From positions 62,001 to 126,000 of the forward strand of contig NZ_BMZE01000001.1 in NCBI RefSeq assembly GCF_014652635.1: a stretch of 64,000 bases of DNA, read 5' to 3'. The DNA is from Devosia pacifica. Its GTDB lineage: Bacteria > Pseudomonadota > Alphaproteobacteria > Rhizobiales > Devosiaceae. The notes under the pieces were generated by a model. That model was not told the origin of the DNA and did not search any database. It was given only the letters and a program-made list of their open reading frames with translations. Made by a program: the position numbers and the translations under genes. Shown piece by piece: positions 43,317-50,462 of the stretch (position 1 is its first letter; each line of letters starts with the position of its first letter).

Positions 43317-44666
43317 ATGCGTCTTTCCCGTTACTTCCTTCCGGTCCTGCGCGAAGTACCTAAAGAGGCGGAGATTGTCTCACACCGGCTGATGCTGCGC
43401 GCCGGCATGATCAGGCAGCAGGCATCCGGCCTCTATTCCTGGCTGCCGCTTGGCTACAAGGTGCTGATGAAGGTTCAGCGCATCATCGAGGAAGAGCAGA
43501 ACCGCGCCGGTGCGATCGAACTGCTGATGCCCACGATCCAATCGGCCGATCTCTGGCGTGAGAGCGGGCGTTACGACGCCTATGGCAAGGAAATGCTGAG
43601 GATCGAGGACCGGCACGAACGCGAGTTCCTTTATGGCCCGACCAACGAGGAGATGATCACCGACATCTTCAGGTCCTATGTGCGCTCCTACAAGGACCTG
43701 CCGCTCAACCTTTACCACATTCAATGGAAGTTCCGCGACGAGGTGCGTCCGCGCTTCGGCACCATGCGAAGCCGCGAATTTCTGATGAAGGATGCGTATT
43801 CCTTCGATGAAGATAAGGATTCTGCGGTAAAGGCTTATCGCCGGATGTTCGTGTCCTACCTGCGCACGTTCCGTCGCATGGGCCTCACTGCCATTCCGAT
43901 GCGTGCCGAGACCGGTCCGATCGGGGGCGATCTCAGCCATGAGTTCATCGTGCTGGCCGATACCGGCGAAAGCGCGGTATTCTGCCATGCCGACCTTCTC
44001 GACAAGCCCATTCCCGGTATCGATACCGATTACGAGGGTGATCTGCAGCCGATCGTAGACGACTGGACATCGCTCTATGCGGCGACCGAGGACATCGTCG
44101 ACATGGCTGAGTATGAACAGGCAGTGCCCGAGGAAAAGCGTGTCTCCGCCCGCGGGATCGAGGTTGGGCAGACCTTCTATTTCGGCACCAAGTATTCCGA
44201 ACCGATGAAAGCCAATGTCACCGGCGCGGACGGCAAGGATACGCCTGTGCACATGGGCTCCTACGGTATCGGACTGACGCGCGTCTTGCCGGCGATCATC
44301 GAGGCCAGTCATGACGATGATGGAATTATCTGGCCCGTCAGCGTCGCGCCGTTCGAGGCTGTGCTGATCAATCTCAAGGCCGGCGACGATGCCTGCAACT
44401 CTGCCTGCGAAGAGCTCTATGCGGAGTTGGCTGATGCCGGGATTGATATACTCTACGACGATCGCGACCAGGCTGCCGGAGCGAAGTTCGCGACCGCGGA
44501 TCTCGTTGGCATCCCATATCAGCTGATCGTTGGCCCGCGCGGGCTCAAGTCCGGTGAGGTGGAGCTGAAGCATCGAAAGAGCGGCGAGCGCGAGGCTGTG
44601 CCGCTGGCGGAGGCAGTCAGCCGCTTGAAGTCGCTGATCGTCCCGCAAAGAATGGACCAGGTTTGA
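43317..44666 (+). CDS. proS: Prolyl-tRNA synthetase
   Basis: A class II aminoacyl-tRNA synthetase, 449 residues. The short form, without the editing insertion domain, is typical of alphaproteobacteria. Motif 1 is in the region [12 protein letters not shown], motif 2 is [21 protein letters not shown], motif 3 is [14 protein letters not shown]. The anticodon-binding domain ends with [16 protein letters not shown]. The ATG at 43317 has CGGAG seven bases upstream. Its TGA overlaps the TTG start of the next gene. Confidence 0.95.
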
Positions 44667-46033
44667 GCACGACCACGCAAACAGACAAAAGAGCAGGGGC
44701 CGGGCCCTTCTCGAAATTCGAGTGGATGGTAGCTGGTCGGTATCTGCGGGCTCGGCGCAAGGACACATTCATCTCGGTGATCGCGGCGCTGACCCTCGTC
44801 GGCGTTGCCATTGGCGTTGCGACCCTGATCGTCGTCATGTCTGTAATGAACGGTTTCCGGGAGGAGCTGTTGAGCAAGATCCTCGGGCTCAACGGGCACT
44901 TCACCGCATTCCCGATTGAAGAGCAGTTCACAGACTACCAGCAGGTGGTCCAGCAGATCGAAACCGTCGACGGTGTCGAGTTCGCGGTCTACTTTGTCGA
45001 AGGACAGGCACTTGCATCGGGCGACAACCAATCGACCGGCGTATCGGTGCGCGGCATGGATTCCGAGAATATCGCAAAGCTTCCGCTTCTCAGAAACAGC
45101 GCCATCCAGGGCGGCTGGGACGAATGGGATGGCAGTTCCGGTGTCGCAATTGGCTATCGTCTTGCGCAACGGCTTGGGGTGGGCCTGGGAGATCCGGTCA
45201 CGATTATCAATCCGGATGGCGCCACAACACCGTTCGGCACGACCCCACAGATCCGGTCGTATCCGGTTACGGTGATTTTTGACCTCGGCATGGTGGAATT
45301 CGATTCGCTCTTCCTGTTCATGCCTCTGCAGCAGGCGCAGGAGTATTTCCGGCTCTATGACGATGTGCTGCGAGAGGGGCAGGAGCCGCTCGATCCGATG
45401 GCGACCGATGAGGAAATCGACGCTGCCTATGAGCGAATTTATCAGGCCACCGCAGCGGAGATTTTCATATCTGATCCGGATGCCGTCGGCATAATGCGGC
45501 AGCGCATCCAGGCCGCCCAGATCGATCAGCCATTGGTGCTGACGGATTGGCAGCAACGTAACGAGACCTTCTTTTCGGCCCTGCAGGTAGAACGGGTGGT
45601 GATGTTCACGATCCTGTCGATGATCATCGTCGTCGCCGCGTTCAACATCATCTCCAGCCTGGTGATGCTGGTGAAGGACAAGGCGGCAGACATCGCCGTG
45701 CTGCGTACCATGGGCGCGACGCGCGGTGCGATCATGCGCATATTCTCCATCACTGGAACGGCGATTGGCGTAGCGGGCACGCTGGTGGGGCTGGTGCTCG
45801 GGCTGATCATCGCGGCCAATGCGGAGCCGCTGCGTGCTTTCGTGTCGCGCACCCTCGGCGTCGCGATTTTCCCGCCCGAGGTGTTTTTCCTCTCGTCCCT
45901 GCCGTCCCGCACAGACCCGGCTGAAGTTATGACTGTCGTGTGCCTTGCGCTGGGCCTGAGCTTCCTCGCAACGCTCTACCCGGCATGGCGGGCCGCGCAA
46001 TACGACCCGGTCGAGGCTTTGCGCTATGAGTGA
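44663..46033 (+). CDS. lolC: Lipoprotein-releasing ABC transporter permease, LolC/E family
   Basis: An inner-membrane permease of 456 residues that, with LolD, releases lipoproteins to the periplasmic carrier LolA. It has a transmembrane helix near residues 38-60 ([20 protein letters not shown] in part), a large periplasmic domain, and three C-terminal helices ending in the FtsX-type segment [18 protein letters not shown]. Only one LolC/E gene is present, as in many alphaproteobacteria, where it forms a homodimer. The start is TTG at 44663, overlapping the proS stop. Its end overlaps lolD by eight bases. Confidence 0.92.
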
Positions 46034-46730
46034 TGTGCATCTGATCCTCGAGAATGTGCATCGCCATTATGGGGTTGGCGACAAGAAGGTGCATGTCCTG
46101 GAAGCGGCGAGCCTGACGGTTCACAGCGGTGAGCTCGTGGCTCTTGTCGCGCCGTCGGGCGCCGGCAAATCGACCCTTCTGCACCTGTGCGGATTGCTGG
46201 AGCGGGCGCAATCGGGCGAGATCGAGATTACCGGCACCAAAACCAGTGCACTCAGTGACCGTGGCCGTACGCTGTTGCGCCGCTCCGCAGTGGGCTATGT
46301 CTACCAATTTCATCATCTCCTGCCCGAATTCTCGGCACGCGAAAATGTCACCCTGCCGCAGATGATCGCCGGCTATGCCGGTCCGGAGGCAAACAGGCGC
46401 GCGATGGAGCTGCTCGACCTGTTAGGCGTAGCGCATCGTGCGGATCACCGCCCGGCAGAATTGTCCGGTGGGGAACAGCAGCGCGTGGCCATTGCCCGGG
46501 CAGCTGCGAACCGTCCTCGTGTGATTCTCGCGGACGAGCCGACCGGCAACCTCGACCCGGCAACAAGCGATCTGGTGTTTGAAGCGCTTGCTGGCCTTAT
46601 CCGGAATGAGGGGGCCGCCGCACTGATCGCGACTCACAATCACGATCTGGCGCGCAAAGCCGACCGAATCGTCACTCTGCGTGACGGCCTAGTGGTCGAT
46701 CACCAGCTACCGTTGGTAACGAACGCTTAA
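46026..46730 (+). CDS. lolD: Lipoprotein-releasing system ATP-binding protein LolD
   Basis: The ATPase of the lipoprotein-release machine, 234 residues. Walker A is [11 protein letters not shown] (about 42-52), the Q loop [12 protein letters not shown], the signature [14 protein letters not shown], Walker [13 protein letters not shown], and the switch histidine ATHNHDLA. It overlaps the permease gene and ends 98 bases before a small peptide gene with an SOS-type promoter. Confidence 0.95.
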
Positions 46731-46770
46731 GCACAGACGCTCCCTGTGAACATCGGGGAGAACACGAGCG

Positions 46771-46799
46771 TAGACGTGAACAAAAAGGGAACATATAAG
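46771..46799 (+). promoter_or_regulatory. SOS promoter: LexA box inside a -35/-10 spacer
   Basis: TAGACG (46771-46776), exactly 17 bases, TATAAG (46794-46799). In the spacer lies GAAC-N7-GAAC (46778-46792), the direct-repeat LexA box of alphaproteobacteria (equivalently GTTC-N7-GTTC). LexA bound here would block RNA polymerase. Transcription would begin about 20-25 bases before the peptide ATG at 46829. An additional GAAC pair at 46748-46763 has a spacing of eight and is probably not a LexA site. Confidence 0.7.
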
Positions 46800-46828
46800 A
46801 CCAAAAGGGAAACACGGGAGATTATCTC

Positions 46829-46927
46829 ATGCTCGCTTTTGTCAAAGACCTTGCAGCCTTCGTCACCCTTTGCGTCTTCACGATCGGCTCGATCGCCTGG
46901 ATGGATGTGCTTTCCAGTTTTCTGTGA
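46829..46927 (+). CDS. 32-aa single-span membrane peptide, SidA-like SOS division-inhibitor candidate
   Basis: The peptide begins MLAFVKDLAAF and ends AWMDVLSSFL. Residues about 8-25 form a single hydrophobic, probably transmembrane, helix. GGGAG lies nine bases before the ATG, a good ribosome site. The gene lies between lolD and dnaE behind a LexA-box promoter. In Caulobacter the SOS-induced inhibitor SidA is a 29-residue inner-membrane peptide that acts on FtsW, and I recall it being encoded next to dnaE. Size, membrane span, SOS control and position all agree; sequence homology cannot be tested here. dnaE may be read from the same promoter. Confidence 0.65.
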   Translation: MLAFVKDLAAFVTLCVFTIGSIAWMDVLSSFL

Positions 46928-47006
46928 CTGTGATGTGGATTGATCGCGTGTCGGGTTGTCTGCGCCCCCGTTGCTGGTGGATACCGGATCAAGACGAGGG
47001 ACCACG

Positions 47007-50000
47007 ATGAACTCACCCGGCTTCATTCACCTGCATGTTCATTCTGCATTCTCGCTGCTTGAGGGCGCGCTGCAGTTGGAGGCGATTCTGTCGCTCGCCA
47101 AGGAGGACATGCAGCCGGCTCTAGGCATCGCCGACACCGGGAATCTGTTCGGAGCGCTCGAATTCTCGGAAAAGGCGGCGAAGAAGGGTATCCAGCCCCT
47201 GATCGGTTGCGAACTGCCGGTCGACTTCGCGGCCGCCGAAGAGCGGACCAATGAGCGTGGCTTTCAGGGCTGGCGCGGGAAATCGAGCGTCGTCCTGATG
47301 GCGGCAACCGAAACCGGCTTCCGGAATCTGTCTGACCTGGTCAGCAAGTCCTATCTAGAAGGTGACGATGGGCTTGCGCAGGCGAGGTTGGACTGGATGA
47401 CCCCCCAGGCGCTCGAAGGCATCATTTGTCTGAGCGGTGGACCGGAGGGCGCAGTCGACGCCGCGTTTGCCGCGGGGCACGAGATTAATGCCGGCAAGCG
47501 CCTGGACCGACTGCGCGAGCTATTCGGGGACCGCTTCTATATCGAACTGCAGCGCCACGGACGGCCGCAGGAAGCAACTGTCGAGCCGCGACTGATCGAC
47601 TATGCCTATCGTCACGGCATCCCGCTGGTCGCGACGAACGAACCGTTTTTCAAGAAGTCAGATGATTACGAAGCGCACGATGCATTGCTGGCCATAGCTG
47701 GCGGCACCGTGCTGGCGCAAACCGAGAGGCGCAAGCTGAGCGATCAGCATCATTTCAAGACGCGCGCTGAAATGATGGAGCTGTTCTCGGACCTGCCGGA
47801 AGCGCTCGAGAACACTGTCGAGATTGCGCGCAGGGTGAGCTATCGGCCGCGCACGAGGGGGCCAATACTTCCGAAGTTCGCCGCAGCGGTTGATGTCGGC
47901 GAGGACGAGGCGGTGGCCGCCGAGGCCGCGGCCCTTCGCGAGATGGCCGAGGAGGGGCTGGCGCGACGGCTGGAGACCGTTGGACCGGCGCCAGGCAAGT
48001 CCATCGAAGAGTATCGCGAGCGCCTTGCGATGGAACTCGACATTATCCAGAGCATGAAGTTTCCCGGCTACTTCCTGATCGTCGCCGACTTCATTCAGTG
48101 GGCCAAGTCCCGTGATATTCCGGTGGGGCCGGGGCGTGGCTCCGGCGCGGGGTCTCTCGTGGCCTACAGCACCACAATCACCGACCTCGACCCGTTGCGC
48201 TATAATCTGCTGTTCGAACGCTTCCTCAACCCGGAACGCGTTTCGATGCCCGACTTCGACATCGATTTCTGCCAGGACCGCCGCGAAGAGGTGATTCGCT
48301 ACGTCCAAGACAAGTACGGCACGAAGCAGGTCGCGCAGATCATCACGTTCGGAACATTGCAGGCGCGGGCCGTCCTGCGTGACGTCGGTCGTGTGCTGCA
48401 AATGCCGTATGGGCAGGTGGACCGCATCTGCAAACTCGTGCCCGCGAACCCAGCGGACCCTTGGTCGATCGAGCGCACGATGAAAGAGGAGCCGCAGTTC
48501 CGCATGATGGCGGAACGTGACGAGACTGTTGGCTATTTGGTCTCGATTGCGCGCAAGCTCGAGGGGCTATATCGCCACGCTTCGACTCACGCCGCCGGCA
48601 TCGTCATTGGCGACCGACCGCTGGAAGAGCTGGTGCCGCTTTATCGCGATCCGCGCTCTGACATGCCGGTTACCCAATACAATCTGAAGTGGGTGGAGCC
48701 TGCCGGCCTCGTCAAATTCGACTTTCTTGGTCTCAAGACCCTGACGACCATCAAATACGCCGTCGAGATGGTGAAAGCTGCCGGCACAGATCTCGATATC
48801 GATGCCATTCCCATTGATGACGCTGAGACCTATCAGCTTTATGCACGCGGCGACACGTACGGCATATTCCAGTTCGAAAGTGCCGGCATGCGCCGCGCCC
48901 TCATGGATCTGAAGCCCGACCGGATTGAAGACCTGATTGCGATGAACGCCCTCTATCGGCCCGGTCCGATGGATAATATCCCCAGCTTCATCGACCGTAA
49001 GCATGGCCGCGAACCGGTAGAGTATCCGCACGCGACGCTGAGTGAGGTGCTCGACGAGACGTACGGCATCATTGTCTACCAGGAACAGGTGATGCAGATC
49101 GCGCAGCTGCTATCCGGTTATTCGCTCGGCGAAGCGGACATGCTGCGACGAGCGATGGGCAAGAAGATCAAGGCGGAGATGGACAAGCAACGTGTCCGTT
49201 TCCGTGAAGGGGCGCTCAAGAACGAACTGAGCGAAAACCTGGCCGACACCATTTTTGACCTGCTGGCCAAGTTTGCCAATTATGGCTTCAACAAGAGCCA
49301 CGCTGCAGCCTACGCCTGGGTCTCTTATCAAACGGCTTATCTCAAGCAGCACCACCCGCATGAGTTTTACGCCGCGTCGATGACGCTCGACATGGGCAAT
49401 ACCGACAAGCTCTCGGACTACCGGCGCGAAGCGATGAAAAAGGGCATCGAAGTCGTCCCGCCTTGTATCAATCGCTCCGAGACGTTGTTCTCCGTCAAGC
49501 GCAAGTGCATCTACTATGCGCTCAGTGCCGTGAAGGGCGTCGGGCGGCAGGTTGCCGAGCATATCGTCGAGGCGCGGGGCGACGTCCCGTTCAAGGACCT
49601 GGCGGATTTTGCCGGCCGGGTCGATCCGAAGGTGCTCAACAAGCGCACGCTCGAGACGCTGATCAATGCCGGTGCGTTCGACGCGATGGTGGAGCGCAGG
49701 GAGCAGGCTGTGGCTGTGATCGACACGATCATCGGCACTGCCCAGCGCAATGCCTCGGATCGCAGCGATGGCATCATCGATATGTTTGCTGCCGATGTGC
49801 CCGAGCCGATTGTAGTTCCACCGAATGTGCCGGCGTGGCCGATGGCCGAACGCGCAGACCGCGAGCGCAACGCTATTGGTTTTCACCTTTCTGCTCATCC
49901 TCTCGATGCGTATTCGGATGTCTTCGATCGGCTGCGCGTACAGCAATGGACGGAGTTCGAGCGCGCGGTGAAGGAGGGGGCATCGGCCGGGCGGCTGGCG

Positions 50001-50462
50001 GGAACTGTCTCCGCCCGACAGGACCGGCGAACCCGCAAGGGGACCCCGATGATGATCGTGACGTTGTCGGACCAGAGCGGCAGTTACGAATGCATCGGCT
50101 TTTCCGAGCAGATCGACCAGTTCGGTTCGTTGTTGCAGACTGGACGCTCGGTCATCCTGCAGGTGTCCGGAGAAGAACGGGCTGAAGGTGTCAGCCTCAG
50201 ATTGATTTCGGCGGAGCCGCTCGATGCCGTGGCTGAGAAAGTAGATCGCCGCCTGACCGTCTTCGCGGCCGACGTCAAGTGCTTGTCGCCAATTCGTGCG
50301 CAGCTCAAGAGCGGGGGCGAAGGGCAGGTCAGCTTCGTGGTGATCCGTGACGGCGGTGCGCGCGAATACGAGATCGAGCTGCCTGGTGGCTTCAAGGTCT
50401 CGGCAGAAGTGGCGGGCGGGATCAAGGCACTCGAGGGTGTCACAGATGTCAGGCTGCACTAG
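47007..50462 (+). CDS. dnaE: DNA polymerase III subunit alpha
   Basis: The replicative polymerase, 1151 residues. The N-terminal PHP domain starts HLHVHSAFSLLEGA. The catalytic aspartates are in MPDFDIDFC. Other family parts are GPGRGSGAGSLVAY, the finger segment FNKSHAAAYAWVSYQTAYLK, a helix-hairpin-helix region near ALSAVKGVG, and the C-terminal OB fold (GTVSARQDRRTRKGTPMMIV in two parts). It is the housekeeping DnaE1 rather than the SOS polymerase DnaE2, judged by length and context after lolD. The ATG at 47007 is preceded by GAGGGA; a frame starting at 46956 is rejected. Confidence 0.96.
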   Translation: MNSPGFIHLHVHSAFSLLEGALQLEAILSLAKEDMQPALGIADTGNLFGALEFSEKAAKKGIQPLIGCELPVDFAAAEERTNERGFQGWRGKSSVVLMAATETGFRNLSDLVSKSYLEGDDGLAQARLDWMTPQALEGIICLSGGPEGAVDAAFAAGHEINAGKRLDRLRELFGDRFYIELQRHGRPQEATVEPRLIDYAYRHGIPLVATNEPFFKKSDDYEAHDALLAIAGGTVLAQTERRKLSDQHHFKTRAEMMELFSDLPEALENTVEIARRVSYRPRTRGPILPKFAAAVDVGEDEAVAAEAAALREMAEEGLARRLETVGPAPGKSIEEYRERLAMELDIIQSMKFPGYFLIVADFIQWAKSRDIPVGPGRGSGAGSLVAYSTTITDLDPLRYNLLFERFLNPERVSMPDFDIDFCQDRREEVIRYVQDKYGTKQVAQIITFGTLQARAVLRDVGRVLQMPYGQVDRICKLVPANPADPWSIERTMKEEPQFRMMAERDETVGYLVSIARKLEGLYRHASTHAAGIVIGDRPLEELVPLYRDPRSDMPVTQYNLKWVEPAGLVKFDFLGLKTLTTIKYAVEMVKAAGTDLDIDAIPIDDAETYQLYARGDTYGIFQFESAGMRRALMDLKPDRIEDLIAMNALYRPGPMDNIPSFIDRKHGREPVEYPHATLSEVLDETYGIIVYQEQVMQIAQLLSGYSLGEADMLRRAMGKKIKAEMDKQRVRFREGALKNELSENLADTIFDLLAKFANYGFNKSHAAAYAWVSYQTAYLKQHHPHEFYAASMTLDMGNTDKLSDYRREAMKKGIEVVPPCINRSETLFSVKRKCIYYALSAVKGVGRQVAEHIVEARGDVPFKDLADFAGRVDPKVLNKRTLETLINAGAFDAMVERREQAVAVIDTIIGTAQRNASDRSDGIIDMFAADVPEPIVVPPNVPAWPMAERADRERNAIGFHLSAHPLDAYSDVFDRLRVQQWTEFERAVKEGASAGRLAGTVSARQDRRTRKGTPMMIVTLSDQSGSYECIGFSEQIDQFGSLLQTGRSVILQVSGEERAEGVSLRLISAEPLDAVAEKVDRRLTVFAADVKCLSPIRAQLKSGGEGQVSFVVIRDGGAREYEIELPGGFKVSAEVAGGIKALEGVTDVRLH

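What the first reader, a model, noticed from the sequence alone, without database searches (positions are those of the whole stretch)
46771..46927. SOS-controlled 32-aa membrane peptide between lolD and dnaE: a SidA-like division inhibitor
Seen: TAGACG-N17-TATAAG with GAAC-N7-GAAC exactly in the spacer, then GGGAG and a 32-codon frame with one hydrophobic helix. Known: alphaproteobacterial LexA recognises this direct repeat; Caulobacter SidA is a 29-aa SOS-induced inner-membrane peptide that inhibits division through FtsW, and I recall it lying beside dnaE. Inferred: this is the Hyphomicrobiales counterpart, usually missed because of its size, and dnaE may gain SOS-induced transcription.
Basis: partly seen in the sequence, partly recalled or inferred. 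Interest (0 to 1): 0.78.

Follow-up and report, generated by a model that had tools for sequence, protein, structure and literature searches.

The report
SOS division-checkpoint micropeptide beside dnaE
A tiny membrane protein that current annotation overlooks, predicted to be switched on by DNA damage, sits just before the main DNA polymerase gene, and it is related to the Caulobacter protein SidA that stops damaged cells from dividing, which suggests that this safety brake is shared by many alphaproteobacteria rather than being a Caulobacter speciality.

Summary
A LexA direct repeat lies inside a promoter, followed by a 32-codon single-helix ORF between lolD and dnaE. The peptide occurs in 37 of 37 same-genus genomes, the window's included; the 30 loci read are all ATG, 32 aa and under purifying selection (dN/dS about 0.14). 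An exact GAAC-N7-GAAC lies within 600 nt upstream of dnaE in 41 of 72 order regions, against 0-5 for nine control patterns; 37 also have SD and membrane ORF. Genome-wide, 38 of 42 profile hits at E<=1e-4 lie within 700 nt upstream of dnaE. In Caulobacter vibrioides that slot holds SidA itself (NCBIfam NF033228, E=2e-20). A profile from order relatives without the window's family finds both the window peptide and SidA, while shuffled copies fail. NF033228 misses the window peptide, and the link runs through intermediates. So this is a divergent member of a dnaE-linked SidA family. Induction, division arrest and FtsW binding are inferred, not shown.

The parts
46771..46776 (+). -35 hexamer TAGACG
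   Evidence: Sequence; aligned position reads T[AGC]GAC[ACG] in the 30 same-genus loci
46778..46792 (+). LexA operator GAACAAAAAGGGAAC (GAAC-N7-GAAC) inside the promoter spacer
   Evidence: same place in 30 of 30 same-genus loci with 0 or 1 mismatch; same motif before this genome's lexA
46794..46799 (+). -10 hexamer TATAAG
   Evidence: Sequence; aligned in the same-genus loci
46799..46813 (+). Degenerate second operator GACCAAAAGGGAAAC (2 mismatches), 21 nt after the first; 28 of 30 same-genus loci have a second box with at most 1 mismatch at this spacing
46816..46820 (+). Shine-Dalgarno GGGAG, 8 nt before ATG
   Evidence: GGAG-type sequence at the aligned place
46829..46927 (+). sidA-like gene: 32-aa peptide, one predicted helix (residues 2-31)
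47007..50462 (+). dnaE, DNA polymerase III alpha subunit; 79 nt after the peptide's stop codon, no terminator-like site between
   Evidence: NCBIfam NF004226, 1436 bits
46026..46730 (+). lolD, upstream neighbour
   Evidence: Best hit TIGR02211 LolD, 241 bits, below that model's cut-off of 307.75; lolCE permease upstream at 44663-46033
46716..46731 (+). GTAACGAACGCTTAAG, a degenerate counterpart of a CtrA-type site found at this distance in 29 of 30 same-genus loci (not in the window under the same pattern); overlaps the lolD stop
   Evidence: factor inferred

Best explanation
The ORF is a divergent homologue of Caulobacter SidA: a LexA-repressed, single-helix inner-membrane micropeptide encoded directly upstream of dnaE. 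After DNA damage RecA triggers LexA self-cleavage, the operators in and just after the promoter are freed, the peptide is made and inserts in the inner membrane, and it holds the FtsW/FtsI/FtsN septal synthase inactive until repair is done. Because no terminator-like site separates it from dnaE, read-through probably raises dnaE transcription at the same time. Shown here by sequence: gene, operator, promoter, coding selection, synteny, homology to SidA. Inferred: LexA binding, induction, membrane insertion, FtsW target, division arrest, effect on dnaE.
For: Found in 37 of 37 same-genus genomes, the window's included. 30 of 30 loci read have ATG and exactly 32 aa; mean dN 0.112, dS 0.793, a pattern seen only in this frame. 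Operator in the same place in 30 of 30; this genome's lexA has the same box. Order: exact box within 600 nt upstream of dnaE in 41 of 72 regions, against 0-5 of 72 for nine control patterns; box+SD+membrane ORF in 37 of 72 (controls 0-3); rest of class 16 and 14 of 107 (controls 0-8 and 0-2). Genome-wide profile over 91 genomes: 40 of 42 hits at E<=1e-4 lie within 3 kb upstream of dnaE on its strand, 38 within 700 nt; the profile was trained partly on these peptides. Order profile without the window's family, against 10,228 ORFs: window peptide E=0.027 (next window ORF 2.8), the peptide in the 29 other same-genus loci, C. vibrioides SidA E=0.0015; rest-of-class profile: window peptide E=0.0015. 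At E<=0.01 the order profile hits 57 of 62 Caulobacteraceae and 29 of 30 same-genus peptides, 0 of 1240 and 0 of 600 shuffled, 0 of 92 reversed. The C. vibrioides peptide is SidA by NF033228, and LexA boxes precede the Caulobacteraceae peptides. hhalign probability 91.6 over 21 columns. FtsW A31, where A31K strongly suppresses SidA but not DidA (PMC4211646 passage), is Ala and F145 is Phe in the window genome's FtsW.
Against: NCBI's SidA model does not hit the window peptide and is over cut-off in 0 of 192 class genomes, with two weaker matches. A Caulobacteraceae profile alone does not find the window peptide and a same-genus profile alone finds no Caulobacteraceae peptide. The rest-of-class profile reaches Caulobacteraceae only weakly: 0 of 62 at E<=0.01 while 1 of 1240 shuffles passes; 21 of 62 against 10 of 1240 at E<=1. 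So the link runs through order intermediates. In 35 of 72 order and 93 of 107 other class dnaE regions the box+ORF rule finds nothing. At E<=0.1, 11 of 58 genome-wide profile hits lie elsewhere than upstream of dnaE. FtsW: A246 is Ser in the window; F145 is Met in congener G016, which has the peptide; A31 is Ser in order genome G322, which has no profile hit. No expression, binding or phenotype data.
Confidence: 0.84

Rival explanations
1. It is an SOS-induced membrane-depolarising peptide toxin of the TisB type (dormancy or persistence) rather than a divisome inhibitor.
For: Same size class (recalled), single predicted helix, LexA box; membrane peptides of this size can be toxic when overproduced (general knowledge).
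Against: Homology to SidA, whose division role is published; charged residues K6/D7 and D26 flank the hydrophobic stretch instead of running along one face (sequence); no Rfam match above its gathering score at the locus (one sub-threshold ilvH match inside dnaE); dnaE-linked conservation across the order. The TisB comparison is recalled, not tested.
Confidence: 0.07
2. It is a regulatory leader ORF for dnaE: the purpose of the unit is SOS-induced dnaE and the peptide matters only in cis.
For: Just upstream of dnaE on the same strand in 40 of 42 strong genome-wide hits; no terminator-like site between.
Against: dN/dS about 0.14 and an amino-acid motif shared across families; distance to dnaE varies from tens to hundreds of nt; RNA fold weaker than shuffles (z +1.95); the Caulobacter member acts on division through FtsW (PMC4211646 passages).
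Confidence: 0.06
3. Box and ORF are chance features of an intergenic gap.
For: Box count in the window alone is not above chance.
Against: Conserved box, promoter and ORF in all 30 same-genus loci read, and box+SD+ORF in 37 of 72 order regions.
Confidence: 0.005

Closest known systems
SidA of Caulobacter crescentus/vibrioides (CCNA_02004; NCBIfam NF033228)
   Same: LexA direct-repeat operators, about 30 aa, single hydrophobic helix, position directly upstream of dnaE, aligned core with [RK][DE] before the hydrophobic stretch and F17
   Different: 32 aa against 29; not detected by NF033228; one exact and one decayed operator in the window against one exact and two one-mismatch boxes in C. vibrioides; function untested
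DidA of C. crescentus
   Same: Small damage-induced single-TM inhibitor acting on the FtsW/FtsI/FtsN complex (PMC4211646 passages)
   Different: 71 aa, SOS-independent (DriD), binds FtsN; homology not tested here
YneA (Bacillus), SosA (Staphylococcus), SulA (gammaproteobacteria)
   Same: SOS-induced division inhibitors
   Different: Different proteins of other phyla or, for SulA, an FtsZ inhibitor (search listing, passages); homology not tested here
TisB (E. coli)
   Same: SOS-induced peptide of similar length (recalled)
   Different: Membrane toxin with a different charge pattern (recalled); homology not tested here

Membership tests
SidA family (by descent) | Sequence homology to C. crescentus SidA | tested here: met
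   Order profile without the window's family finds both the window peptide and C. vibrioides SidA; shuffled controls 0 at E<=0.01. Link is through intermediates; direct profile-to-peptide tests between the genus and Caulobacteraceae fail.
SidA equivalog NF033228 (NCBIfam) | Score at or above 35 bits | tested here: not met
   No hit for the window peptide; C. vibrioides 72.4 bits, a Caulobacteraceae relative (G112) 20.5 bits; 0 of 192 class genomes over cut-off. I therefore call it a SidA-family homologue, not this equivalog.
SidA family | LexA operator at the promoter | tested here: met
   own lexA carries the same box. Binding itself not tested.
SidA family | About 29 aa, single transmembrane helix | tested here: met
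   32 aa; 17-residue Kyte-Doolittle maximum 2.06; one helix 2-31, pLDDT 94.8. Membrane insertion not tested.
SidA family | Gene directly upstream of dnaE | tested here: met
   Window; C. vibrioides; order genomes
SidA family | SOS-induced expression | not testable with these tools
   Needs RNA or protein data after damage
SidA family | Binds FtsW/FtsN and blocks constriction | not testable with these tools
   FtsW A31 and F145 equivalents kept, A246 is Ser; consistent only
TisB-type SOS toxin | Amphipathic charged helix and antisense RNA control (recalled) | tested here: inconclusive
   Charges flank the hydrophobic stretch (sequence); no Rfam match above its gathering score

The most novel reading that the evidence does not exclude
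A sidA-dnaE unit is the ancestral alphaproteobacterial SOS checkpoint: one LexA promoter couples arrest of septation with supply of replicative polymerase, and in this genus a CtrA-type site upstream also ties it to the cell-cycle master regulator.
Probability: 0.4. Interest if true: 0.76.

Novelty: new member of a known kind. Interest (0 to 1): 0.62.

Why it matters
In the passages I could read SidA is described only in Caulobacter, and NCBI's model is over its cut-off in C. vibrioides alone among 14 control genomes and in 0 of 192 class genomes. None of 12 peptides tested from outside Caulobacteraceae matched NCBIfam, and none reached a Pfam cut-off. Yet the box+ORF rule finds the gene before dnaE in 37 of 72 regions from 23 families of this order (families counted by hand). 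It gives a named, testable candidate for how damaged cells of this order stop dividing, supplies natural sequence variation for mapping the SidA-FtsW contact, and raises the question whether replicative polymerase is SOS-induced with it.

Tried and rejected
Direct protein search outside the window's family gave weak matches in 4 of 24 genomes; two of them (G052, G039) turned out to lie just upstream of dnaE, two (G038, G057) do not. Pfam and NCBIfam do not know the window peptide. A structured RNA leader was rejected: the fold is weaker than shuffles and the only Rfam match is below its gathering score and inside dnaE. The generic promoter and terminator scan found nothing in 46600-47200; its -10 rule excludes TATAAG. 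My first FtsW extraction returned nothing, and in the second several rows were antisense frames (G112, G308, G302, G272, G225, G002); I dropped these and used the C. vibrioides, window, G016, G360 and G322 rows. My Caulobacteraceae ORF picker chose wrongly in five loci (L178, L179, L213, L238, L243) that the profile recovered. The expression that defined the Caulobacteraceae training set kept 62 of 80. Class survey: 148 of 192 genomes had a dnaE match and I read 110 upstream regions; the 38 unread are genomes of 0.8-3.0 Mb, so the class figure leaves out small genomes. Order survey: 90 of 91 had a match and I read 72, leaving 18. For the LexA regulon I fetched 18 regions picked by eye from the 100 listed boxes. 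Literature searches for SidA outside Caulobacter found nothing in the held library; the original SidA paper is not held.

Full report
Observation. The feature is exactly as described. On the + strand TAGACG (46771-46776), 17 nt and TATAAG (46794-46799) form a promoter; GAACAAAAAGGGAAC (46778-46792) sits within its spacer; GGGAG precedes ATG 46829 by 8 nt; the ORF of 32 codons ends at 46927; dnaE starts at 47007. lolD lies upstream (best hit TIGR02211 with 241 bits, under that model's cut-off) and dnaE downstream (NF004226, 1436 bits). By itself the box is not rare in the window (3 found, 1.95 expected). Genome-wide it is in excess (138 against 92 for the reversed pattern). Of 18 regions that I picked from the 100 listed boxes, one box begins 63 nt before the start codon of the genome's own lexA, and others lie before ssb and a repair-related radical SAM gene; several of the other picked boxes had no recognisable SOS gene.

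It is a real gene. The peptide is found in 37 of 37 same-genus genomes, the window's included, at E<=2.1e-6. The 30 loci fetched all start with ATG and are exactly 32 codons; mean dN is 0.112 and mean dS 0.793 (428 of 435 pairs), third codon positions vary most, and the other two frames show no such pattern. The LexA box is in the same place in 30 of 30 loci, exact in 23 and with one mismatch in 7; a second box 21 nt downstream has at most one mismatch in 28 of 30, while in the window it has two. The alignment also shows the -35, -10 and a GGAG-type SD at the same places.

It is widespread and tied to dnaE. In the window's order 90 of 91 genomes had a dnaE N-terminal match and I read 72 upstream regions. 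An exact GAAC-N7-GAAC on the dnaE strand within 600 nt occurs in 41 of 72, against 0-5 of 72 for nine control patterns (other spacer lengths, the opposite strand, unrelated direct repeats); with SD and a hydrophobic ORF of 24-55 aa it is 37 of 72, from 23 families, against 0-3. In the rest of the class it is 16 of 107 (controls 0-8) and 14 of 107 (controls 0-2); the class sample leaves out 38 small genomes. A profile of 34 peptides run over the 91 whole genomes gave 42 hits at E<=1e-4, of which 40 lie within 3 kb and 38 within 700 nt upstream of dnaE on the same strand; at E<=0.1 it is 47 of 58 within 3 kb and 11 elsewhere. Many of these peptides were in the profile, so the independent tests below carry the homology claim. 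The two strong hits away from dnaE were G350 and a second one in G363.

It is related to SidA. The C. vibrioides DSM 9893 peptide (L224) scores 72.4 bits, E=2e-20, with NCBIfam NF033228 'cell division inhibitor SidA'. Papers give sidA = CCNA_02004 (PMC10769358, one passage) and dnaE = CC1926 (PMC1839093, table passage). A profile from order peptides, leaving out the window's family, searched against 10,228 ORFs, ranks the window peptide first in the window (E=0.027, next 2.8), finds the peptide in the 29 other same-genus loci, and finds C. vibrioides SidA at E=0.0015 with 71 of 80 named loci (59 of them below 0.01), plus five more where my ORF picker had chosen wrongly. A profile from the rest of the class finds the window peptide at E=0.0015. 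At E<=0.01 the order profile hits 57 of 62 Caulobacteraceae and 29 of 30 same-genus peptides, 0 of 1240 and 0 of 600 composition-matched shuffles and no reversed copy. hhalign of 16 against 12 peptides gives probability 91.6 over 21 columns. Against this: NF033228 misses the window peptide; profiles built from the genus or from Caulobacteraceae alone do not see each other; the rest-of-class profile hits 0 of 62 Caulobacteraceae peptides at E<=0.01, where 1 of 1240 shuffles passes; and NF033228 is over cut-off in 0 of 192 class genomes and in 1 of 14 controls, C. vibrioides. So it is a divergent homologue and not NCBI's equivalog.

Mechanism. [quoted passage not shown] two-hybrid data show contact with FtsW and FtsN, and FtsW A31K strongly suppresses SidA but not DidA (PMC4211646, passages). 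The window peptide has one predicted helix (residues 2-31, pLDDT 94.8, no alignment), with K6/D7 and D26 flanking the hydrophobic stretch. The window genome's FtsW has Ala at the A31 position, Phe at F145 and Ser at A246; congener G016 has Met at F145. The simplest reading is a LexA-controlled brake on the FtsW/FtsI/FtsN complex. No terminator-like site lies between peptide and dnaE, so SOS read-through into dnaE is plausible but untested; 'dnaE' does not occur in the main text of the 2025 Caulobacter SOS transcriptome paper (PMC12700426; passages seen).

An extra control element. In 29 of 30 same-genus loci, all but the window, a [CT]TAA-N7-[CT]TAAC motif lies at -109 to -112 from the ATG, about 60 nt upstream of the LexA box; the pattern occurs 0 times in 173,512 nt, both strands counted, of the rest of those loci. 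Genome-wide matches to YTAAC-N6-YTAACC lie beside genes whose proteins I recognise as CcrM and FlgB, textbook CtrA targets (recognition and textbook status recalled), but also beside other genes and in a dispersed repeat. Near the peptide it is nearly absent from other groups (1 of 51 order and class loci, 0 of 80 Caulobacteraceae). The window keeps a degenerate version across the lolD stop. CtrA control is an inference.

Rivals. A TisB-like toxin, a dnaE leader ORF and chance were considered; homology to SidA, coding selection and the lack of RNA structure leave the first two unlikely and the third excluded.

Novelty. The kind is known; its presence, position and operator in this order, and its absence from Pfam and NCBIfam for the 12 peptides tested from outside Caulobacteraceae, appear undescribed in the library I could search (the founding paper is not held).

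Noticed in passing
L002-L030, -109 to -112 from the peptide ATG; window 46716-46731: CtrA-type direct repeat [CT]TAA-N7-[CT]TAAC at fixed distance in 29 of 30 same-genus loci, degenerate in the window; may tie the SOS peptide to the cell cycle in this genus.
   Followed up: partly
genomes G016 and G010: Dispersed element CTAACAGTCTGCTAACC: 15 copies in G016, 5 in G010, none in the other four genomes searched.
   Followed up: no
L280, L281, L282, L283, L285, L286, L288 (window genome): Probable LexA targets: lexA, ssb with two boxes, an rSAM_link_UDG repair protein; also an SRAP-like protein and a PrmA-like methyltransferase (named by eye) and two small proteins of unknown role.
   Followed up: partly
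G350:C16:19515-19607 and G363:C4:407405-407485: Profile hits of the peptide family away from dnaE (the G350 hit has an in-frame TGA); possible second copies or chance.
   Followed up: no
L044 and L059 (family f34): Longer 47-aa versions with a charged N-terminal extension before the conserved core.
   Followed up: no
window 46748-46763: GAAC-N8-GAAC, one base off the LexA spacing, upstream of the promoter; not seen in the aligned same-genus loci.
   Followed up: partly
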